Shown here piece by piece: positions 34,195 to 47,914 of a stretch of DNA of 64,000 nucleotides. Position 1 is the first letter of the stretch; the number at the start of each line of letters is the position of its first letter. The DNA comes from Diplocarpon mali (taxonomy: Eukaryota; Ascomycota; Leotiomycetes; Helotiales; Drepanopezizaceae): contig JAENRP010000015.1 of the NCBI GenBank assembly GCA_024741835.1, positions 143,517-207,516 on the forward strand. The letters run 5' to 3'. The position numbers and the translations under genes were made by a program. Below the pieces are notes generated by a model. That model was not told where the DNA came from. It made no database searches and was given only the letters and a program-made list of their open reading frames with translations.

Positions 34195-36323
34195 CAAGCA
34201 ATGTGATATCAACTACTTAGAAAATAATAATTACCTTTGGAGAATTGCAGTTTCACCTTTGTATAAAGATAAAAGTACACTTTCGACTGGCTTTTGTACT
34301 TGTGATTTTAGGATCTCACGGACTAGGCTGAAGTTTGTATAGCTTTAGTATGAACCCTAGCCTCTGTGTCATCTAAACAGCTTTTAGGATTTGAGCTTCT
34401 TCGAAACATTTTCCCAAAGCCTAAAATACAGAATTTCATTCTGAGCAACTATTATCTCTCTTTGTAAAGTATTGATAGGTAAGTTTGAGTCTGTATTATC
34501 TTGAGATCCAAGAAAGTATCGACTTAGATGGAGAAGATTAAGTGCCCAGAACGCAAAGAAAGTCGATCCGCGCGTACACCAGTCTATACCAGATTTAACC
34601 TACGGTTACCATGGGAGGGTCGATTATTTTTCATGCATCTACTTTTCCAAATTGTATATCCTATGCCTTGCCTACTTAAATCTGCCTGCCGCTCTATGCA
34701 GGGTAATGCTCTCTTATGATCCACGCATCGTCAAGTAAAAAATCCAGAAGCTGTGAAGATAGAGATATAAGCCTAAAAAATATCAAGAACTGAAACTATA
34801 CGTAGAACTCATTAATAAATACTATATACTTTAATTTTAATATACCTCTGATTCCTCTTATTATAATAGGTTTGGCTATAACAAGAGCATGTAGCAGGTA
34901 CTACTAGCTTTTCGAGCATATCTCTTATTTCTCTTCTCTCTTCTCTCTATTGCGCTTTTCCCAGCTTTATTTTCTTAGGCACCCGCTTGTATCGCTGATC
35001 AAATCTGGCCTACTATCGTCGATTTTGTGAAAAATCTCTGATGGACAGTCTCCCTGTTCCCAAATACCGCATTTCGCCTTTTATTTAGCTGTACTAGCAT
35101 GGCCGCATAGCAGTCGCCACTCTTGAAATCGAGATCATGAGAGGTTATCATTCTGCGTAGTATGGTAGACAGACTTAAATAAGCGAGGCATTGAAGATAA
35201 TGTTTCAGAAAAGTCGAGGAATATGAAGCAATCGACCCTATGGAAGGGAGCGAATCGTGCAGAGAGCTAAGCAGCGCAACCAAAACGGTATTGCCACCTA
35301 ATGAATATCTCTTTTCAATGGGCTGTAGATGTGGATCTTAAACTCTAAGGGGAAAGTGAGTTCTTGATCAGTCAAAGTCTGTGTAATTTAGTTTGTCGCA
35401 AGCTGAATACAATTTAAATACCATATCAGCATTCTCTAGCAAGGGGTTAAATAATATCTTTATAAGGTTAGACTTCTTTTCTATGTGATGTTCATTTGGC
35501 CTGCGACGAAGTAGCAGCCGACTGAAACAACGGTCGTATCACGCCCAATTATATGATATATAAAGTCAGTTCGGATCTCGGCTGTGGACAGGTGGACCAA
35601 CTCAAACTCAACTCAGTCGCTGGGCTCTCTGCTTAGCTTCAGCTGCTTTAGTATTTAGGTATAGCGGTTAAGTATTATTTCTTGATAAGAAAGGGACCCC
35701 TGGAGTTTTGCATTCAACACTATGTAATACTCTTAATTCTTAATAGAACTTCGCAACAGAAATATTAGAATACTCCTGAGATATGCCCAAATAGTATATG
35801 TGATTTCTTGCATTTCTTCTATTAATATGGCTAATTTGCAGAGGAAAATATTTCATACTGAATAAAATTCGCAAAATACTCGACCGCTGTACCTCTAGAG
35901 CTAGGGATAACAATATTTAACATAGCTGTAGTGGCAAAAACGGGCTCTTTCCAAGCCCAAGACCAGATGTTCCTAAAGAGGCTTTATTATCGTAAATGAG
36001 TGCTATATTACTGATTTTTACTACATCAGCATGTTAGCGTAATTGTGCTATTAGTTCCCCATATATCAGTAAATACCAACGCCTTCGAGGACTTACTTAA
36101 TCTTTTAAACAATACTAATTAGCTACAAAATGTAGTCTTACCCAGCGTGCAAAGGTAGGATTTCATAGCAAAACTTGCAAAACGTCGCTTAGCGAGCAGT
36201 TGCGCTCGAGGCTCTTCTCCACTTGATTCGTCAGCAATCCTCAGCATAACTCGGCCAATCAGAGGTACCGTGGTTAGCTACTACAACTTGTCGCTCACAG
36301 GGGGGTTCAAATAGGAGCGTCTA

Positions 36324-37172
36324 CTTCGTACCATAGGTAAATAATGTACAATTCTAGGCTATGTATACTAGATACTTGGCAATGCTGCTTTTACAATTTC
36401 CTTAATATTTTATATAGCCTCCTCCTACTGCGATCATAGCTTTATATCTCTTTAGCATTTCCTTAATTAATTCTCTAATCCTTTTAATTGTTATCGATTC
36501 TTACGCTTCTTTTATAGCTTTATATAGTCTCTTATAGGATCGATAAACCTTTAGATGTTTACCCTTAATATAATCTTTCATTTTATCCTATACTATCTCG
36601 ATTGGGTTTAAATTAGGAGAATTCGTAGGCTAAAAGATAGGGGTAATCCCGATTGCTTCAAATACTAATTAGGTATATTTAGAAGCATACCCTTTTACAT
36701 TATCCTATTAGAATTCAAGCTTAAGATATTGCTATAGAATCTCTTAAACCTTTAGGATAATAATTCTAGAGTATAAACCTTTATTTATTATTTCTTAATC
36801 CTTTTCTTAAAATAACCCTTAATGCTAACTGTATTTCCCTAATATTATTTTTTAAAACATCTATCTAATCTTCCTTTAATATCGATCCTTAATACAATTA
36901 GGGTGATATTCTTCTTAAGACCCGATTTCTTATATAATCTATTCCTTTATATATTTCCTAGGATTAACCTACGTTTCATTACTTTATAAGACTGAAAACT
37001 ATTGCTCTTTAGTCTAATTCTTATACTTAAGAGCCTATTAAAGTCGAGAGATCTGATTTATATATATAAGGACTAGTTTTCAATAAGCAATTCGTCAAAC
37101 AAAGCCTTCCTTCTCAAAAGCTATACAAATAGCGTAAAAGCCGACGTTCTAATAAAGAATCGAAGGAATATT
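36324..37172 (-). mobile_element. Dead Tc1/mariner element, transposase C-terminal side (left piece)
   Basis: Left piece of a Tc1/mariner element interrupted by the retrotransposon at 37173. TA at 36322-36323, then a terminal inverted repeat matching the 18.6-kb MITE. Minus-strand translation gives a DNVKGYASKYT segment, its Asp at 36702-36704, then SPNLNPIE with Glu at 36597-36599. Exactly 34 residues lie between them, the DD34E spacing of Tc1 transposases, followed by DKMKDYIK. Stops at TGG- and CAR-type positions show inactivation by RIP. With the right piece (44742-45173) the original length is about 1281 bp, close to the compact fungal Tc1 elements such as impala. Confidence 0.88.
37168..37172. 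repeat. Target-site duplication ATATT, left
   Basis: ATATT immediately before the 5' LTR, identical to 44737-44741 immediately after the 3' LTR. Confidence 0.93.
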
Positions 37173-37479
37173 TGTAACGGCTGCACCTCCACTTAGTGCA
37201 ATTACCTGGGAGTGCGGCGTTTTAAGGTTTCGCAATCTCGATTCGATATAGGGTTTTTTCGAATCGACCCTAAAGGTGCAAAAGGATATTCTTATATAAT
37301 ATTATATAAATAGACAAAGAGCCTTAAGCTGCTTATATATATAAGGAAGAAGGGCTCTCCCTTAAGGAGGGCTCCTTAACTTCTTCGTTTCCTTTGTATT
37401 AAACCTATAGAATACGCCTTTTGCACTACTTCTTACTCCTATACTTGATCTCGCACTTTAGCGGTTCTGTATTATTATA
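37173..37479 (+). repeat. 5' LTR, 307 bp
   Basis: Starts TGTAACGGCTGCACC and ends TATTATTATA; the original end was probably GTTACA, giving a TGTAAC/GTTACA inverted terminus. Against the 3' LTR I count about 22 differences, all transitions. TTAAATGAAGAAG follows, where the relative at 3665 has TTGGATAAAGAAG; this is the expected primer binding site, its tRNA not identified. Confidence 0.93.
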
Positions 37480-39100
37480 TTAAATGAAGAAGTTCTTCTC
37501 TATTAAGGACGGCTTTTAATAATATCCTACCCCTTTTAGAATTCAATTTGCAGTTGTTTCGACTTTCGATAGAATCAGGATCTTAAAGATCTTTTAAATA
37601 AATTAAAAGCTTAAGTGTAGCTTATTAATTAGTATAATCGAAGAACGCTTTTATTAGCTGGATTTTCTTAACTACTCCTTTCGTAGAAGTGCTATAGGCA
37701 GAAGTTAGGAGAGCACTATATTATTAGAACCCTTTTTCTATAGAACCCCTTTTTAACCGAATTACTACTAAAACCAAAATCGGTAAAATGAATTCCCTAC
37801 TAGCTAGAAGCTAGCAAATATAGAATATACCTAGTTTGTTTAAGGAACTAGCTTCTATAGGGAGTACTCCTACCCTAGCCCTTAAGGCCGGACCTTCCTC
37901 TACTGCTAAGGGTAAGAGACTATAACGCTATAGCTAAGCCAACTAAGATAAATAAGACTTTTTAAACCTAAATGTATTATAAAGAATAGTCTTAGGTTTA
38001 AAGGAATCCTTATAATATTAAGATTAATCTAATCGATAATTATAAAGCGAGATTAGCAGGATTGCCTAAGCTATCTCTAGCCTAAAGACCCTAGCTTATT
38101 AAAGCTAAGAGATAGCTTAGCGCGTATATTAGACTATTAAGCGAGAATCTACCTACTCTTGCTAAAGCAAGACTTAGCCTCTTTTAGAAGTCGATACAAA
38201 TATAAAATAGCTAAAAATTCAGCTAATTGAAAAGATCATCCCCTTTAATAATAGGACCTCCTTAATATATAAGTAGTAGTTAGCTTTAGTCTAAAACCGA
38301 TTGCAAGTTAATGCTAACCTATATTTAAATGAGTAAGCTTGCTAAGCCCTTATTTGGGGATCTACTATAGGATAAGCCTAAATATACCTTAAACCTTAGT
38401 ACCTTTTAAAGACTAACCCCTTTCGAAACTATTAAGAAATAGTAGAATTGCTAAGCAGTTACTTTTTAATTAGCTAAGAGGTAGACCTATTTCGATCCAC
38501 TTTTTATTACCTCTATATAAGAGAAGCCGGTTATTCTAAAGAAACTTTCCCTTAGTTTTAAGCCTAATTCTAATCTACTGCGATCTAAAGAGAGGTCTTA
38601 AGATCTAAGTAGTTCTTCTTTATATAAAATAAGATTACCCTTTAGCTTAGAGCTACTTACGCTCTAGCTAAGGCCTCTTAAGGGAAGGACTATACTATTA
38701 TAATTAATTAATTAAATGCCCTTGATGCTAAATGCTAAAGTAACTAACTTCTTAACCCTTCGACTAAAAGCAAGGCGACCTTAGTATTATACTAAAAGAC
38801 ATCCGGTTCGCTCCTTAATAAGGCCGCTTGCGGTCTAAGCGCTAGAAATACCACCTGAGTTTCTAAGCTACTAGCCCTAAAGCCTACTACCCCTTTTTAT
38901 TAAGATACGCCAGCTAAGGCTAGTTCTCCTACTTTGCCCTTTAAGCAAGCTACCTACTAGACTTATAGCAAAACTAGTTATTATAAGACTAAGTGCCCTT
39001 TTGCAAGTAAGATTAATACTTTAAAAGATATAAAGGAAGATAATCTGACTTTAGACTTAATTAAAAATAGGATTAAAATAGAGGAAGATTAAGAAAATAA
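37480..39100 (+). pseudogene. gag remnant with a mutated CCHC zinc knuckle
   Basis: Region between the LTR and the protease. At 38955-38996 the codons TAC, TAT, TAT and TGC stand at the spacing Cx2Cx4Hx4C; the first three are what TGC, TGT and CAT become after G to A or C to T mutation, which fits a destroyed nucleocapsid zinc knuckle. An intact frame does not remain. Confidence 0.65.
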
Positions 39101-39130
39101 AGAGGCCTAGGAAAAGACTCTTACTTAGGC

Positions 39131-39364
39131 TTGCGAAAGTGCGACTTATCGAAGCTAGATCTTAACTCTTTAATAAGAGAGAAGCAATTCCTAACCTCTT
39201 ATACTATTAGTATAAATGGACTTAGAGTATTATTATTAGCTTTAATAGATACTAAAGCCTTTAATTACCTATTTTTAAATCATTCCCTTTTTATATATCT
39301 TTTAAAAGCGATTAGCTTTAAAATTCTTCCTTTTCTAGCCCTTATTCCTATCTATAGATTTTAA
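39131..39364 (+). pseudogene. Retrotransposon aspartic protease remnant
   Basis: A surviving 77-codon frame reads INGLRVLLLALIDTKAFNYL. The DTKA at 39248-39259 occupies the DTGA/DSGA active-site position of retroviral-type proteases; the Lys codon AAA is explained by two G to A changes from GGA. Not functional. Confidence 0.8.
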
Positions 39365-40169
39365 AATACCATTTGCGTATAAGCTATATACTATATACGC
39401 TTTTATTTAATAATTGATAAAAGGCATATTTATAACTGCCCTTAGGTTATTCTTGACTTAGGCCAGCGTAATACTATTATTAGAGCCAAATAGATATACC
39501 GATTCCGATTTAAACTTAATCCGAAGGAAAACCGATTTATATAGCCTTTATATTACCTCCTATCTTCCTAATTCGCAAAGGAAATTATTATTTATCTTCC
39601 CCCTTTTAAAGGACTTTAGATCTGATCTGACTATTAAGCTAATATTAATCGTAAAGAATAAGAAATAGCTATAAATAAAGCTTAATAGATTAATAGAAGA
39701 TAGTCCTGCGTTAATTTAGTAGCTCTAACTAAGCGTAAGATCCCTATTACTATTACTAAGCTAGCGCTCCTACCTATAACTAAGCTAGATCTAGGAAAAT
39801 AGTCTAATACAAATCGACTATAATCTAACCTTATTTGCAAATGCCTTAAAGCTGCAGTTCCTATTTGCGAAATTAGTACTAATGCCTTTTATTATAATAT
39901 AAAGCGTAAGGAGATAGAGTTCTTTTAAATTAGTATTTACAAAGTAGATAGGATTCTAAAGGAAAGATATAAGCCTAAGAATCCTAATGTTAAAAAGCTA
40001 ATTAACAATCGATTCTTAAAATAGTACTAATCTCTAAGATAAGCTTTCTTAAAAAGGGATGCAAATACCCTCCCTCCCTATTAATACTACGATTATAAGA
40101 TATAGTTAAAAGGGCCTTTGCCTAATGCCTATTCGCCCCTCTACTATCAATCTATTAAAGAGCTTAAGG

Positions 40170-41300
40170 TTATAAAGGAGTACTTACTTAAGAATTTAAA
40201 CAAAGGCTTTATTAAAACAAGTACTAGCCCCTTTACTTCGCTAGTACTATTTATAAAAAAGGCCGATAGTAGCCTTTGATTTTGCATAAACTACCAGAAG
40301 CTAAACGTACTAACTTAAAAGGACGCTTACCCAATTCTAAGGATAGATAAGCTCTTAAAGCGAGTATCTAAAGCTAAGATTTTTATAAAACTAGATATTC
40401 GAGCCGCTTTTAATTAGATACAAATAGACCTTAAATCAGAGGAATATACTACTTTTTAAATAAGGTATAGATCCTATAAATGCAAAGTTCTCCTATTTAG
40501 CCTTTATAATAGACCTAGTACTTACTAGCAGTATATAAATAACATTCTCTTAGATTACTTAAATGATTTTTATATAGTGTATTTAGATAATATTTTAATT
40601 TACTTTAAGAATATTAAAGAGCATTAGGGTTATATTGAAAAGGTATTAAAACGACTTTTAAAAGCTAGCCTTTAAGCAGATATTAAGAAATGCGAGTTTT
40701 ATATTACTTAAACTTAATATCTTAAATATATTCTAATAACGACCAGGATCGAACTAGACCTTAAAAAGGTCGAACCGCTATGCAATTAGAAGTACTTGAA
40801 AACTGTCACTAGAGTAAAGTCCTACTTAGGATTTTGCGAGTTCTACTAATAATTCATTTGCAACTTTAGGCTAATTGCTAAACCCCTTTCTATTTTAACC
40901 TAATCAACAGTACCTTAGAATTAAATAGAAAAGTGCCGAATCGCTTTTAAAGAGCTTTGCAAATAGCTGCTTTCGATTCAGCGGATTTACTATTTTAACC
41001 CTGACTTGCCTATAAAGCTAGAAACTAATACTTCTAATAGCATTATCGCTAGAGTACTTTCTTAGCAATACTCCGATAAGTAATAGTACCTAATTAGCTT
41101 CTATTCGCATATACTCTTTAGCTACGAACTTAATTAAGAAATATATAATAAGGAACTCTTTACTATTATAGAATCCTATTATAAATGGAGACTTAAGCTT
41201 ATATCACTTAAGGAGCGAGTTGATATTTACTTAAATCACTACTCCTTTAAGTACTTTATAATTACTAAGGTTCTAACTACGAAATAGTACTAATAGATGG
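40170..41300 (+). pseudogene. Reverse transcriptase and RNase H remnant
   Basis: Interrupted translation shows the RT blocks in order: SPFTSLVLFIKKAD, CINYQKLN, KLDIRAAFN, KVLLFSL and the catalytic box as YLDNILIY at 40580-40603, where the second Asp codon has become AAT (from GAT). RNase H-like sequence follows (KLETNTSNS near 41020, ELFTIIES near 41155). Many TAA/TAG codons at CAR or TGG positions. Confidence 0.88.
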
Positions 41301-41789
41301 AATTCCTATCTGACTTTAATTTTCGAATTGTATATACTTTAAGTAAAGACAATTAGAAGGCTAATATTCTTAGCTGCCGAGAGCAGAATATACTAGTTTA
41401 TAAATAAGCGAAGCTAGATAGCTGATCCTAGGTTCTGATTTCCCTAGCCTAGTTAGACCTCCGAATTAATACCGAACTGGCCGACAAATTTCTTACCAAA
41501 TCTGCCGAAGGCACCTTTGCCCTAATATTAACCAATGCTCCTAATTTAATCTTAAATCGACCTAAGGATTCCTTTAATTTGATCGAAAAGCTTTATTAAG
41601 ATAATTGCGAATCCTTTTAAGAGATTTATACCAACTTTCCTAAAAACTACTCTTTAAAAGACAGATTGCTTTACTTTAAGAAGCGTCTTTGCGTATGCTA
41701 TAATACTCTCTTATATACTTATCTAATTTAAGAAGCTTATAACTAACCTTTAAATGCGCACCTTAATAGCTTAAAGACCTATTAGCTAC

Positions 41790-42800
41790 TTGCTCTTAAG
41801 TACTATTAGGTTAAGATAGGTTTGAATTATAAAAGATTTATTGCAAACTGCAGACCTTATTAATTCTCGCATTTAAAGACAACTAAATAATAAGGCCTCT
41901 TATAGCCTTTTCCTATTCCTAACTATCCTATATAGCACTTATATATAGATTTTAAGGATTTCCCTCCTAATAAGCATAGTTTTAATCGAATCCTAGTTTT
42001 TATAGACCGACTTAGTAAGAGTGCTATTACAATCCCTTATTATAAAGATATCGACGCTTAAGGAACTGCCCGATTATTCGTTCAATAGATATATCAATTC
42101 GGCTATACTCTAGAGATAATTACCTTAGACTAAGGCCCCTAATTCGTCTCCTTATTTTAAAAAGAGTTCTACTATATTATTAGTATTAAGATTAAACTCT
42201 CTATAGCATACTATAAGGAGACTAATAGCTAAACGGAGATTATAAATAAGTATATTAATTTAAGGCTATAGCCTTTTATTAATTACTATTAAGATAATTA
42301 AAGTAAACTGATTCTATTAATAGATTATATGCAATTGACTCTCCCTTATACTTCAATTAGTATAATCCTATATTAGCTTAAGTATAGAGTTACGCCTTAG
42401 ATAAGTTGGGACTAGATCTCTTTAAAACCGTCCAGCTTATAAGAGAGACTGAACTAAGCAGAGGCTAGGCTAGTAGTAGAAAGAATATATATAGCTTAAG
42501 AAGTAGCAAAAGGCAATATAGAACGCGCCTAAGAGAAAATGCATAAGTTTATAAATCAATACTAAAGGGAGATTAATTAGAAACCTAAAGATATAGTCTA
42601 CCTTTTAATAAAGAATCTTAAGAACTACCGCCCTAATAGGAAACTAGCTAATTAATAGGATAGTCCTTTCAAGGTCCTTAAGAAGGTAGGCAATTTATAT
42701 TAGATCAAGTTGCCTATAGGTTTTATAATATATAATATCTTCGCGCTAGAGCTACTATTTAAAGATCTGCAGAACCCTTTACTAAGTTAAGAATAACCTT
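41790..42800 (+). pseudogene. Integrase remnant, D,D35E core
   Basis: First Asp at 41948-41950 (YIDFKDF), second Asp at 42128-42130 (TLD before GP.FVS), Glu at 42236-42238 (QTEI after ETNS); 35 residues separate the last two, the retroviral-type integrase spacing. VFIDRLSKSAITIPYYKDID fits the Ty3/gypsy integrase core. Stops throughout. Confidence 0.88.
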
Positions 42801-42814
42801 AGCCTACTATAGAA

Positions 42815-43010
42815 AAGATCATTAGGTAAGAAGAGTATAAAGTATCTAAGATATTAAGTATACGCCTATCTTAAGGGAAACTAGAGTACTAGGTCAAATG
42901 GACTAATTATAATCCTGATTTAAATTAGTATTACGCCTTAAATTTTATAAGGTTATTATATAAGATTCGCGACTTTCACTAGGCTAACCCTATAAAGCTA
43001 AGACCACTTT
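42815..43010 (+). pseudogene. C-terminal chromodomain remnant of the integrase
   Basis: Interrupted frame reads EEYKVSKILSIRLS.GKLEY, then VKWTNYNPDLN, the chromodomain pattern (E-Y-x-V-x-x-I...L-V-K-W-x-x-Y). It places the element among chromoviruses, whose chromodomains in known cases direct integration to methylated H3K9 chromatin. Confidence 0.82.
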
Positions 43011-43197
43011 AAAACCTATAAGCTTAGCTAAAAGCTTAAGAAAGTAGTATAAAAGATTATAGTTACTTAAAAGATAATAAGCCAGATGCAAAATAGGTTA
43101 GTAAACAAATTTAAAAATATAAATAAAAAAAAAGGAGAAAAATAATAAAAATATAAAAATAATAACACTAAGCCTACTATCCTTTCCCCTTCTCCCC

Positions 43198-44130
43198 TTA
43201 TAACTCCTCCGACCCCTTTTCCTTTGCGCTTAAGGAGACAAGCTCCAACTCCGTTCTAGAGCTGGAACTCGCCTTTTAAATACGCCCCTGCTTAAAACGA
43301 CCCCGACCTCCTCTTGCCGCCACTGGCGCTGCCCTATTAGCTGCTGCGCTTAACGCTACCTTTGCTACTGCAAGTCCTCCTCCCCTTATAAGAGACTCTG
43401 CTACTATAGCAGTCTGCTCTACTAATATAGTAATAGACCTTAAGAGGCTTAGTATAGTTCGGCTAGATTGCTCTAACCTTACTAGTTAAGACTTAATAAG
43501 GTCGCCGCGCTCTTATAAGAAAGTTAGCAATCGATTTAATACTAATTTAAGTTTAACTTATAGCAACTATCGCCTAGATCCCCTTTAGCTGGCTTACTAT
43601 AGCCTTAGCTATAGAGCAGAGCTTTATAAGGCTAGCGCGTTTGAGTTAAATGCGGTTAGTTAAAGCCTCTGCGCTGGCCACTAATAAGAGGTTAATAAGG
43701 ATCTAGGCGCGCTAGACCGCCTCTTAATAGAGCATCTTATAGTTCCCTGCCGAAACTGCCTAAGCGTTATCATTATTATTATCGCCGCTGTTATCCTCCT
43801 CTTACTGCTAGGCAGCCTCCTCCTGCTACTTCTTAAAGGCTATAAATAGCGCCGCGAACTCCTTACTAATATAGGAGGAAAGCTGTAAATAAGTGTTAAA
43901 GCGACTAGAACTTTGGACTTAATTCAAAGTACTTATAAGGATGCACTCTGCCTTCTGCTCTTAGCATTAGTAGCACTTCTTACTACGTTTTAATTTAAAC
44001 TCGCACTTATATGCGATATCGCATATAAGGCGCTGTATATACTAGCAATAACAAACGCAGTAGGCTATTGCAAAGGCGCTTAATAGCAAGGGAATTAGCA
44101 CTACGCATATTAGACGCGATTCGACCCTAG
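43198..44130 (-). pseudogene. Decayed cysteine-rich reading frame antisense to the retrotransposon
   Basis: Between the chromodomain and the 3' LTR one minus-strand frame stays coherent for about 310 codons, ending with TAA at 43198-43200. Its interruptions are almost all TAA/TAG where Gln fits the context, the expected result of CAR to TAR mutation, with no frameshift needed. Order from the N-terminal side: a hydrophobic and Cys-rich start, a cluster Cx5Cx10Cx2Cx6C (43943-44023; KRSKKCY.C.EQKAEC), an acidic Asn/Asp/Glu stretch (EEDNSGDNNND), a Gln-rich helical region, and a Gly/Arg tail (RGGRGRFKQGR) before SSSRTELELVSLSAKEKG. Start codon not certain; an in-frame ATG is at 43735. Function unknown; zinc binding and nucleic-acid contact are guesses. 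Confidence 0.55.
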
Positions 44131-44429
44131 ACTAGGGCAAACTTACTTATAGTAGTTGGTAGTAGTAGTAGTAATTGTTTCTACTACTATGCATTAGCCC
44201 TACGCTATAGTAGTAGGAGTAGGGGACTTATACGGTTATATATAATTATTATACTAAAGAAGGAAGATCTTATAGAGGGAAAAACAAATTTAAGTATATA
44301 ACGCAACTTACGCTAAACCAAATATAGAATAGTACTATTTATATAATAATACGCTAAGTACATTACTATATAAAAATCATCTTAACCTACTAACGCTTAT
44401 AGGCAAGCGTTCTTAAAGGGGGAGGGTAG

Positions 44430-44736
44430 TATAACAGCTGCACCTCCACTTAATGCAATTACCTAGGAGTGCGGCGTTTTAAGGTTTTACAATCTCGATT
44501 CGATATAAGGTTTTTTCAAATCGACCCTAAAGGTGCAAAAGGATATTCTTATATAATATTATATAAATAGATAAAGAGCCTTAAGCTGCTTATATATATA
44601 AGGAAGAAGGGCTCTCCTTTAAGAAGGGCTCCTTAACTTCTTCGTTTCCTTCATATTAGACCTATAGAATACGCCTTTTGCACCACTTCTTGCTCCCATA
44701 CTTGATCTCGCACTTCGGCGGTTCTATATCGTTATA
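44430..44736 (+). repeat. 3' LTR, 307 bp
   Basis: Starts TATAACAGCTGCACC (TG to TA at the terminus) and ends ATATCGTTATA. Same length as the 5' LTR with no insertion or deletion. Confidence 0.93.
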
Positions 44737-44741
44737 ATATT
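44737..44741. repeat. Target-site duplication ATATT, right
   Basis: Matches 37168-37172 exactly. Confidence 0.93.
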
Positions 44742-45173
44742 AGCCTAAGGAGTACGTCGATTTACTCTTAAGGCTATAACCTATTAAATAAGGTATTTTC
44801 GTTATAGAGTATTTAAGTGAGCTTTATAGCCTTAAAGATGATATTAAAAAGTCAATTAAGTCTATAAAGTGTACTAAACTTAACGTTAAGTAAGGTTCAA
44901 TTAAAGGGCGATCTAATCTTAAGTCCAATTGGCATTAAAATAAAGAGTCTAATAGCGTACTCGTTTGTTATAAGAGGTCTATTTTATAAGTGTCTTTAAA
45001 GTTGGTATATTAAATAAAGAATCCATATTAAAAGCGTTGATTTTCAATATAAAAAGCGGCAAATTATTATAGATAAATCATTAGCTATACCCCCTGTATA
45101 TAAGCCCTATTAATAGAAACCGGTAGAATTACGCTAAGATAGCACTTATACATTATTTCAGGCATATACTAAG
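44742..45173 (-). mobile_element. Dead Tc1/mariner element, N-terminal side (right piece)
   Basis: Right piece of the element split by the retrotransposon. It ends GGCATATACTAAG followed by TA (45174-45175). Its last 140 bp is the reverse complement of 18576-18740 in the MITE. The transposase N-terminus should lie at 44742-45030 on the minus strand but is too mutated to recognise. Confidence 0.82.
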
Positions 45174-45175
45174 TA

Positions 45176-47914
45176 AGTCTAAAAGGTGCCCATTCAAAAT
45201 AGTTGGCACTAGATCTTGTATTGAACCTTCTCCTGTTGATAACCTTTGCTTTGTCGCAGGCCAAGAAAAATACGAATTCCACCAAGCCTATACCGCCCAA
45301 TCAAATCAATATTGCCTTACCTAACATAGAAGATCTTTCGGGAGGCACCACTTGATAAGCAAGTAGTATCTGCTTAACCAATCAATAGTGGCGGCAAAAG
45401 ATCATGGGAAAACGCCTTATTATGGTTGCCATTATATATTGCATCCAAGAACAAGCTATCCTTAACCCTATTTGATTCCCTCTATAAAAGGTTAGTAGTA
45501 GTAAGGCTAAGAACATGCCAAGTTAGCTATATAGCTATCGTGCATGACTATACTAGTATCCACTAAGCTTCGATAATAAGGATAGCAGAGAAGGAAAACA
45601 TTGAGGAGGTATAGCTTGCAACTTGTGTTTCCGGAGACACCAGGTTAATAAGGTAGTTGGTATCAACTTTATACAGAGCGTACCAAGTTGGTGGAGTTTG
45701 CAAACTCAACATTAACGTCGTTTTTAAGGCGGGTTAAGAGTAGGTGGAATGAGCCTTCACAAGGTATCTGTTTTGTCTTTGACAAAGTAATGATTAATCG
45801 CTATACTTCTGAAATTAACCTCTACAAAAACTAACCAAGCTGTACTTTGTCATAAGCCAAGAAAATACCACAGTAGCATATCTAGTAGGGTGTTTTGCTA
45901 CAAAGAGTAGGCGTGCGAGATTAAATCGAACTTTTATATAGTGCTTGATTGGTCTGTGTTAAGCACAGAGCCGCAGCGGTTAACCACTATAACCTGTCCG
46001 CTGCATAAGTGCAGAAACAAGGGACAATAAACCTCAACCTAAACTTGAACTTGAACAGGTAATAAGATAGTTGGCAGCTGTTTGCATCAGAACCTGGATC
46101 AAACCCGAAACCAATCGCATCCAAGATTCAACTACCCCCCAACTTCCAGCCCCTGCTAATCTACTCCAACAAAGTAGCTACCTCCTCAACCTCTACGCCT
46201 CTATAGCCCAGTGATAGAAAAACGGGGCCGTTTCAGACCTGTCACCAGCACCGACCTCCAGAACCCAAGGACTCGGACCTCAGCTTGCGATCGGGGTCCA
46301 TTTACTCTGTACTCTGCATGGCATCGCACGAGCAGACGCCAAGCCAGCATAAGATCATTGCGCTTCCTCGAGGAAGCGCAGTGCTCTGGATCCAGATCCA
46401 GATCCAAATCCATCGACAGGAGAATAGCAAATGTCCTCTCTTCTTCCCGTCGAAGAAGAATTTCTTTCTAAAGAGAAAAGAGGCGGAAGCGCAGATCTCA
46501 TCTCATCATAGCTCGTCTCGTACCAAAGCAGCCAACAAATCAATCAGTCACGATGCGGGATGCGCCGTACAAACCCTGAGATCTCATGCGCCACAAATAA
46601 CTTTAACTTATAAAGTCCTCCTTCGTGCCTATTCCCCCCATCCCCGCCCCTCCGACCAAAAATAGAAAAGAAAGAGGACGAAGGAAAAAAAGAGCAACAA
46701 CAACAACAACAACAGAAAAGCCTCACCTCAAACCCCCCGACCAGCCCATCCAAACCACCGCCCTCTCCAACGCATAAACGGCATCCGCAGCCTGCACCGC
46801 GGTCGGAGACACGGCGCCCCCCGTCTCGCGCGCGCTGCGTTTCCGATCCTAAGCGCCGTTTCGCGCCGGCTCGCGGCTGTAGGTTTCGGGTTTCGGGTTC
46901 TGGCGGCTAGGTGATTCAGGTTTTGCGATTTTGCGGTGGCGAGAGGAGGGGGGAGGGAGGAGAGAGAGGGGAGACCGTCGTCCGCGTGGGCTCGCTGGGG
47001 AGGTGCATCCGAACGCTTGTTCACTTGATCCTTCTCCTTCTTCTATGTCCCCGATCGGCTCTTTTTTCTCATTCACTCGTGTATTCTATATTTTGATATT
47101 TTTCTCCTTTGAGGAACTCTAGGAATAGTGTGTCGCGTCCAGCTTAATTTTAGGTTAGGGCGCGGGCGTGCCATCTATGCTAGCCTGGTCGCGGCGTCGG
47201 AGGGTCGCTTATTTTTGTCGGTTCCGGGGTGCAGGGCGGAAGTGCGAACTGGGAATAGTATACGACAGATTTCTTTTTTGGAGGAAGGGGGAGGGGCGGG
47301 GGAGATGGGGCTCTACTGGGCCCGGTAACAACATACAATCATACGTCATCGGGGCAACGACATCTCCCGTCTCTGCAAATGTCCAGCTTCGTAGCTGGGG
47401 GAGACAGAGGGACGTAAGTGAAAGTTATGCGAAAAACTTGGATTCTATTGGGTATCTATTGACGTGGTGCTAACATCCAAAGACTCACTGACCATTCTAG
47501 GTAATACAGATTTACCATACCAAAAGAAAAAGGGACGTGAAGAAGGGAAGAAATAATCAAACGCTTCCCTCTACGCAGACCCAAGACCAAGACCAAGACC
47601 ATGACCAATCCTAGAACCTCAGTTATCTATTGCTGCTCTAATTCTATGCTTTTATTTTCCCCACGCCTACTCCGTCTGAATAAAATTTCGAGTTAGAGGC
47701 AATTATTTTTGCAGGAGGCGTCCTGCGCCCTGCGAGCGGGGTGTGATGTCGTGGTAATGACAGACTACCCGCCGCTCGCCTGTCTTACGATCGCTTTTTC
47801 GCCTTCCACCTATGTCCTGCCCTTGGCCTACCAAAGTCCTGGCCTCAAGACCCCTATCAAGTTTACCCTCTCCCTGCCCAGTCATGTGCCAGAGCAAGTT
47901 CAGATCGAGTTAGC
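45176..47914. other. End of the AT-rich block, then GC-rich gene-free sequence
   Basis: To about 46100 AT-rich debris with an unpaired MITE-family end (GTCGCAGGCC, 45253-45262). From 46200 GC rises and short frames appear on both strands. A minus-strand stretch at about 46725-46853, bounded by a TTAG acceptor-like and an AGGTGAGG donor-like site, reads smoothly (ETGGAVSPTAVQAADAVYAL), but I could not extend it to a protein or name a family. Confidence 0.4.

What the first reader, a model, noticed from the sequence alone, without database searches (positions are those of the whole stretch)
43198..44130. Antisense cysteine-rich reading frame between the chromodomain and the 3' LTR
A single minus-strand frame of about 310 codons stays coherent once TAA/TAG are taken as former Gln codons. 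It has a Cys cluster (Cx5Cx10Cx2Cx6C), an acidic low-complexity stretch, Gln-rich helices and a Gly/Arg tail. Ty3/gypsy elements normally encode only gag and pol on the sense strand, so an extra antisense gene, perhaps a captured host gene or a regulator of the element, would be unusual. It is the best candidate here for something undescribed.
Basis: partly seen in the sequence, partly recalled or inferred. Interest (0 to 1): 0.75.

Follow-up and report, generated by a model that had tools for sequence, protein, structure and literature searches.

The report
Spliced antisense gene in fungal retrotransposon
A mutated fungal retrotransposon carries, on the strand opposite to its own genes, the remains of an extra gene in five pieces (spliced), whose unbroken protein is annotated in the apple-blotch fungus; such backward genes are known from other retrotransposons, and what this one does is unknown.

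Summary
The window holds a RIP-damaged Ty3/gypsy element (37173-44736, target duplication ATATT) with RT, RNase H, integrase and chromodomain. Between pol and the 3' LTR, on the minus strand, lies a gene of five exons and four small introns (44190-43198), not one frame. Read with splicing and X at stops, this copy aligns to an unbroken 252-residue protein predicted in Diplocarpon coronariae: 167 of 251 residues identical, 81 of 84 differences explained by C>T/G>A damage in this copy, 0 by the reverse. In 49 aligned copies, exons 2-5 have no stop shared by all (also in the 40 picked without that protein), every indel there is a multiple of three (5 sites), and a few less damaged copies keep GTAAGT donors. 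The kind is known: brtn of Boty elements and plant antisense aORFs. Three searches gave no other homolog; kinship to BRTN could not be tested. Function is inferred only: perhaps a nuclear regulator of the element.

The parts
37173..44736 (+). Ty3/gypsy LTR retrotransposon with a chromodomain; 5' LTR from 37173, 3' LTR 44430-44736, target duplication ATATT at 37168-37172 and 44737-44741, purine-rich tract just before 44430
   Evidence: LTR pair 37175-37474 / 44432-44731, 93% identical; ends and ATATT read directly; RVT_1 4.3e-19, RT_RNaseH_2 1.5e-15, rve 1.9e-07, Chromo 1.7e-05
44147..44190 (-). Antisense gene exon 1 (44 nt); the codon aligned to the D. coronariae start reads ATA here
   Evidence: aligned to the first residues of P0003; ATG in 0 of 49 copies, ATA 46, GTA 2, part gap 1; 4-nt gaps in 7 of 49 copies and a 2-nt gap in 1
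44101..44146 (-). Intron 1, 46 nt, GTAAGT...CTAAT...TAG
   Evidence: GTAAGT in 47 of 49 copies, TAG in 41 of 49; absent from P0003
44043..44100 (-). Exon 2 (58 nt)
43961..44042 (-).
   Evidence: donor GT in 45 of 49 copies; acceptor ending AG in 34 of 49; no clear branch site seen by eye
43937..43960 (-). Exon 3 (24 nt)
43883..43936 (-). Intron 3, 54 nt
   Evidence: donor GTAAGT in 3 of 49 copies, ATAAGT in 45; acceptor TAG 42, CAG 6, AAG 1 of 49; it is the 18-residue gap in the unspliced alignment
43562..43882 (-).
   Evidence: helix 78-111 of P0003 in a low-confidence model
43513..43561 (-). Intron 4, 49 nt, changes the frame; branch-like CTAAC/CTGAC
   Evidence: donor GTAAGT 4, ATAAGT 44, ATAAAT 1 of 49; CTRAC in 48 of 49; acceptor TAG 30, TAA 19 of 49
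43198..43512 (-). Exon 5 with stop TAA (43200-43198): predicted long helix, Gly/Arg-rich stretch, acidic end
   Evidence: TAA in 48 of 49 copies, part gap in 1
42836..42925 (+). Chromodomain near the end of pol (sense), tail to tail with the antisense gene
   Evidence: Pfam PF00385, piece window:42782-43114, residues 19-48

Best explanation
A many-copy, RIP-damaged chromodomain Ty3/gypsy retrotransposon carries an accessory gene on the antisense strand between pol and the 3' LTR. Supported here: five exons and four spliceosomal introns that would encode a protein of about 252 residues, unbroken in a Diplocarpon coronariae annotation, broken in this copy by C>T/G>A mutation. Inferred: it is transcribed from a promoter between 44191 and the 3' LTR or inside that LTR. 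The introns survive transposition because the packaged genomic RNA runs the other way, where they are not introns; a sense intron would be spliced out in one round. The protein has an acidic stretch, a long predicted helix that may form a coiled coil, and a Gly/Arg-rich part; it most likely acts in the nucleus on the element's own transcription or integration, as has been proposed for other antisense LTR-element genes. My odds: gene structure about 0.9; protein-level regulatory role about 0.4; a role mainly through antisense RNA about 0.25.
For: Homolog: P0003, D. coronariae hypothetical protein PZA11_005919, E 1.7e-21 with the stop-as-X, unspliced reading. Spliced reading: 253 codons against 252 residues, 167 of 251 identical, 81 of 84 differences RIP-direction, 0 in the opposite direction. 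Stops, exons 2-5 joined, 239 codons: in 49 copies 0 shared by all and 10.0 per copy, against 3 and 24.6 or 4 and 20.4 in the shifted frames; in the 40 copies picked by DNA alone 0 and 11.0, against 7 and 26.4 or 4 and 22.2. Gap runs in exons 2-5: 40 runs at 5 sites, all 3, 6 or 48 nt; the single 1-nt insertion (L018) is in intron 4. Columns with transversions in exons 2-5 by codon position 1/2/3: 7/2/12 of 21 (P 0.021 for position 3); the sense pol control gives 3/0/12 of 15. Donors: intron 3 and 4 donors, RIP-prone when a T precedes, are GT in only 3 and 4 of 49, and 3 of the 4 at intron 4 have C before them; intron 1, with A before it, keeps GT in 49 of 49.
Against: No transcript seen. The D. 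coronariae protein is a prediction; I could not see its DNA, nor whether it lies in an element. The start codon there is ATG in 0 of 49 copies here (2 read GTA, which RIP does not explain), and 8 of 49 have gaps of 4 or 2 nt in exon 1, so the N-terminus is uncertain. Intron 2 has no clear branch site. The exon limits were fitted to P0003 before the counts. The codon-position signal rests on 21 columns, weakens at stricter counts (5/1/7, P 0.10; 4/1/7, P 0.066), and by a crude test only 6 of the 21 are synonymous. The 40 gap runs are 5 sites, 26 of them one site. Shared stops are a blunt test: the true pol frame itself has 8 in 200 codons, only slightly better than its other frames (13 and 9). 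No homolog outside D. coronariae. The structure model is poor (mean pLDDT 53.8), so the coiled coil is a guess.
Confidence: 0.87

Rival explanations
1. The sense strand codes here, e.g. an env-like protein with membrane helices.
Against: Pfam gives only PRA1 at E 0.33, far below its cut-off. The antisense spliced reading matches an annotated protein and explains 81 of 84 differences. The longer hydrophobic run is opposite the acidic codons of exon 4.
Confidence: 0.04
2. The antisense RNA itself is the working product: it pairs with genomic RNA to give dsRNA and small RNAs, and the reading frame is secondary.
For: Proposed for antisense LTR transcripts in PMC7264820 (section 8 read); small RNAs from LTR elements in Botrytis (PMC8365987, passages); transposon-derived antisense noncoding RNAs in a powdery mildew fungus (PMC10648671, title and start of abstract in a listing).
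Against: A pure RNA role does not need an unbroken frame in D. coronariae, 3n indels in exons 2-5, or splice signals. Both roles may coexist.
Confidence: 0.25
3. A captured host gene that hitch-hikes in the element.
For: It has introns, as host genes do.
Against: Present in 25 of 25 readable copies (2 in part), not in a few; two aberrant P0003 matches checked in the genome lie in element copies; no family or protein match elsewhere. An old capture is not excluded, but intron-bearing DNA would have to have entered by a route other than spliced mRNA.
Confidence: 0.08

Closest known systems
brtn, antisense gene of Boty-like Ty3/gypsy elements of Botrytis cinerea (Zhao et al. 2011, Virology; paper not held, known to me here only through citations and passages in PMC8365987, PMC7264820, PMC4227169 and PMC5987419)
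   Same: Ty3/gypsy element of a fungus (both hosts Helotiales: D. coronariae, Botrytis recalled); antisense gene between pol and 3' LTR (PMC7264820 passage)
   Different: BRTN sequence not available here, so homology untested; the passages I saw do not say whether brtn has introns; searches with P0003 gave no Botrytis protein
Plant antisense aORF-3R (maize Grande gene23, rice RIRE2, Silene Retand, PvRetro13)
   Same: Antisense, between pol and 3' LTR, present in most copies of a family, mostly without known homologs; Grande gene23 protein is nuclear with its own upstream promoter (PMC7264820, passages and sections 7 and 8)
   Different: Plant hosts; no sequence comparison made here
HTLV-1 HBZ (recalled; the antisense promoter in the HTLV 3' LTR is mentioned in PMC7264820 section 8)
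   Same: Works-like analogy only: spliced antisense gene started at the 3' end, acidic part plus long helix, acts on sense transcription (recalled)
   Different: Retrovirus of people; no bZIP domain found in P0003; no sequence link shown

Membership tests
Ty3/gypsy chromodomain retrotransposon | LTR pair with target duplication | tested here: met
   93% identical LTRs, ATATT on both sides
Ty3/gypsy chromodomain retrotransposon | pol order RT - RNase H - integrase - chromodomain | tested here: met
   RVT_1 and RNase H above Pfam cut-offs, rve (31.7 vs 32.6), Integrase_H2C2 (20.8 vs 25.5) and Chromo (25.0 vs 25.1) just under or under them, read with X at stops
Ty3/gypsy chromodomain retrotransposon | gag and protease | tested here: inconclusive
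   no credible Pfam match in the pieces 38220-39022 and 39170-39602
[quoted passage not shown]
brtn-type antisense gene | protein homologous to BRTN | not testable with these tools
   BRTN letters not held; searches with P0003 gave only itself
brtn-type antisense gene | carried by a Boty-like element by RT phylogeny | not tested
   no Boty sequence at hand
HBZ-like retroviral antisense regulator | bZIP domain | tested here: not met
   no Pfam domain in P0003 at E up to 0.1
HBZ-like retroviral antisense regulator | represses or tunes sense transcription | not testable with these tools
   needs an experiment

The most novel reading that the evidence does not exclude
A fungal LTR retrotransposon lineage carries its own spliced antisense regulatory gene, unrelated to BRTN, whose product switches the element's sense transcription or guides its integration: a convergent fungal counterpart of HBZ, with introns protected from loss by their antisense orientation.
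Probability: 0.2. Interest if true: 0.65.

Novelty: new member of a known kind. Interest (0 to 1): 0.42.

Why it matters
Antisense genes of LTR elements have been reported in plants, Botrytis and retroviruses, and for the plant and Botrytis ones the function is open (PMC7264820). Here the gene has four introns, so spliced reads in RNA-seq of the host would show at once whether it is expressed and on which strand, and an annotated unbroken protein exists for tests. It also shows how a damaged multi-exon gene can be misdrawn when stops are simply read through.

Tried and rejected
Sense env-like frame: rejected. Cys cluster as a zinc-binding motif: rejected, mostly intron. Apparent absence of the segment in L060 and L079: not counted, the sequence after the pol piece reads N. 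Odd matches at C130 and C240: lie in element copies. PDB sequence hits: best E 0.0061 and 0.065 with low-complexity queries, treated as chance. Fold search of the P0003 model: not run, confidence too low. Promoter scan of 44190-44740: bacterial consensus, one site against 1.9 expected in shuffles, no value. Literature: searches; no title or abstract start in those listings names an intron-bearing antisense gene of a fungal LTR element, but Zhao et al. 2011 is not held, so absence from print is not claimed.

Full report
What was checked. The finding says that a minus-strand frame at 43198-44130 stays coherent if TAA/TAG are read as former Gln. The element around it is a Ty3/gypsy retrotransposon: LTRs 93% identical, ends at 37173 and 44736 with ATATT on both sides, and RT, RNase H, integrase and chromodomain in pieces read with X at stops. 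Gag and protease gave no credible Pfam match. The stretch 36001-46000 is AT-rich (28.9-39.6% GC per kb), and the antisense segment of the 49 aligned copies shows the RIP signature: TpA 1.76 times expected, CpA 0.53, TpG 0.40.

Copies. The genome (G000, 49.4 Mb, 676 contigs, unnamed) holds many copies. A DNA search with the segment scored 40 of 197 candidates and all 40 match, at 82-100% identity, the window copy included. A search with the protein P0003 scored 150 of 384 candidates and gave 151 matches, not all listed. A search with the 3' end of pol scored 40 of 204 candidates; of the 30 fetched, 3 end within 56 bases and 2 (L060, L079) run into N; the remaining 25, window copy included, carry the segment, 23 over nearly its whole length, L052 and L063 in part.

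The key find. The minus frame with X at stops (P0001) gave one hit in the protein collection (7994 candidates scored, those sharing most words): P0003, hypothetical protein PZA11_005919 of Diplocarpon coronariae, 252 aa, E 1.7e-21, 50% identity over 39% of the query. The second half of P0003 matches another minus frame, and its beginning others again. Laying P0003 on the minus strand gives exons 44190-44147, 44100-44043, 43960-43937, 43882-43562, 43512-43201 and stop 43200-43198, with introns of 46, 82, 54 and 49 nt. The joined reading has 253 codons; 251 align, 167 are identical, 84 differ. Of the 84, 81 can be explained by C>T or G>A changes in this copy and 0 by changes in the opposite direction; 500 shuffled pairings reach 13% on average and 21% at most. 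So this copy is a RIP-damaged version of nearly the same protein, and the host is probably D. coronariae or a close relative (inference).

Introns. The 49 aligned copies are the 40 plus nine of the ten places fetched (L047 dropped as the place of L041). Intron 1 begins GT in 49 and GTAAGT in 47. The donors of introns 3 and 4 are ATAAGT in 45 and 44 copies and GTAAGT in 3 and 4. RIP turns TpG into TpA: these donors have T before them in all 49 (intron 3) and 45 of 49 (intron 4) copies, and 3 of the 4 that survive at intron 4 have C before them, while intron 1 has A before its GT. Intron 4 has CTAAC or CTGAC, a fungal-type branch sequence (recalled), in 48 of 49. Intron 2 is the weakest: GT in 45 of 49, AG in 34 of 49, no clear branch site.

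Coding signal apart from the homolog. Exons 2-5 joined, 239 codons: 0 stops shared by all 49 copies and 10.0 per copy (range 4-16); shifted frames 3 and 4 shared, 24.6 and 20.4 per copy. Because nine copies were picked by likeness to P0003, I repeated this on the 40 picked by DNA: 0 shared and 11.0 per copy, against 7 and 26.4, 4 and 22.2. The test is blunt: a sense pol piece in 30 copies has 8 shared stops in its true frame and 13 and 9 in the others. Gap runs in exons 2-5: 27 of 3 nt, 12 of 6 and 1 of 48, at 5 sites, 26 of them at one site in exon 5 and 13 beside the acidic repeat. A 1-nt insertion lies in intron 4 of L018. Exon 1 has 4-nt gaps in 7 copies and a 2-nt gap in 1; runs in the flanks are of many lengths but partly come from alignment ends. 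Transversions, which RIP does not make, fall 7/2/12 on codon positions 1/2/3 in exons 2-5 (21 columns, P 0.021 for position 3; with minor count 2 or more 5/1/7, P 0.10; 3 or more 4/1/7, P 0.066); the pol control gives 3/0/12 of 15. Density of transversion columns is 21 of 715 in exons 2-5 and 12 of 231 in introns, uneven among introns (1, 1, 6, 4). By a crude test only 6 of the 21 columns are synonymous. Purifying selection is suggested, not proven.

Four of the five cysteines are in intron 2; the 11 stops correspond in D. coronariae to 3 Gln, 6 Arg and 2 Trp; the Gly/Arg tail was read in the wrong frame. The acidic stretch is right.

Protein. P0003 has no Pfam match at E up to 0.1 and no NCBIfam match, weak PDB hits that I take for chance, and searches with the whole protein (7994 candidates scored, a capped set) and with residues 78-190 (1191 candidates) find nothing but itself. 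A single-sequence AlphaFold2 model has mean pLDDT 53.8, with one long helix 125-207 whose block means reach 70-82 between residues 151 and 190. An acidic stretch, a long helix and a Gly/Arg-rich part suggest a nuclear, nucleic-acid-associated regulator; this is inference.

How it would work. Introns on the antisense strand are not introns in the genomic RNA that is packaged, so they pass through reverse transcription, whereas a sense intron would be spliced out. Four introns in the antisense direction therefore point to a gene used as antisense mRNA (inference from the replication cycle of LTR elements). The promoter would lie upstream of 44190, towards or in the 3' LTR; I have no evidence for it.

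Known kinds. brtn of Boty-like elements is an antisense additional gene (citations and passages in PMC8365987, PMC7264820 and PMC4227169); a Monilinia transcript resembles both Pol and BRTN (PMC5987419 passage). PMC7264820 (passages; sections 7 and 8 whole) lists plant antisense aORFs between pol and the 3' LTR, function unknown. So the kind is known and this gene is a new member, with introns as its notable feature. I could not see Zhao et al. 2011, so I do not claim that introns are new for the kind.

Verdict. Very probably a real, spliced antisense accessory gene in a damaged retrotransposon copy; moderately interesting; function open.

Noticed in passing
window 36380-37172, minus strand: Directly before the element lies a damaged DDE_3 transposase remnant (Pfam PF13358, E 2.3e-06, 28.0 bits against cut-off 28.6), by eye mariner-like (recalled); three frames of the 500 bases behind the element gave no match, so whether the element landed inside it is open.
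   Followed up: partly
exon 1, window 44190-44147, 49 aligned copies: 7 of 49 copies have a 4-nt gap in exon 1 and 0 of 49 have ATG at the start seen in D. coronariae; another ATG, in a different frame, stands at 44194. The true N-terminus is open.
   Followed up: partly
L060, L079 after the pol piece; part of L081: Two element copies read N (1475 bases each in the locus) right after pol at nearly the same place, and L081 has 3361 N: assembly gaps or withheld stretches; not pursued.
   Followed up: no
L041-L050: Some copies are less RIP-damaged than the window copy (exon 5 up to 93% identical to P0003 against 70% for the window), so copies of different age or exposure coexist in one genome.
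   Followed up: partly
G000 as a whole: PMC11527701 (passages) reports 5.67% Ty3 and 20.74% Copia elements for D. coronariae DC1_JKI; how much of the Ty3 share this element makes was not measured.
   Followed up: no
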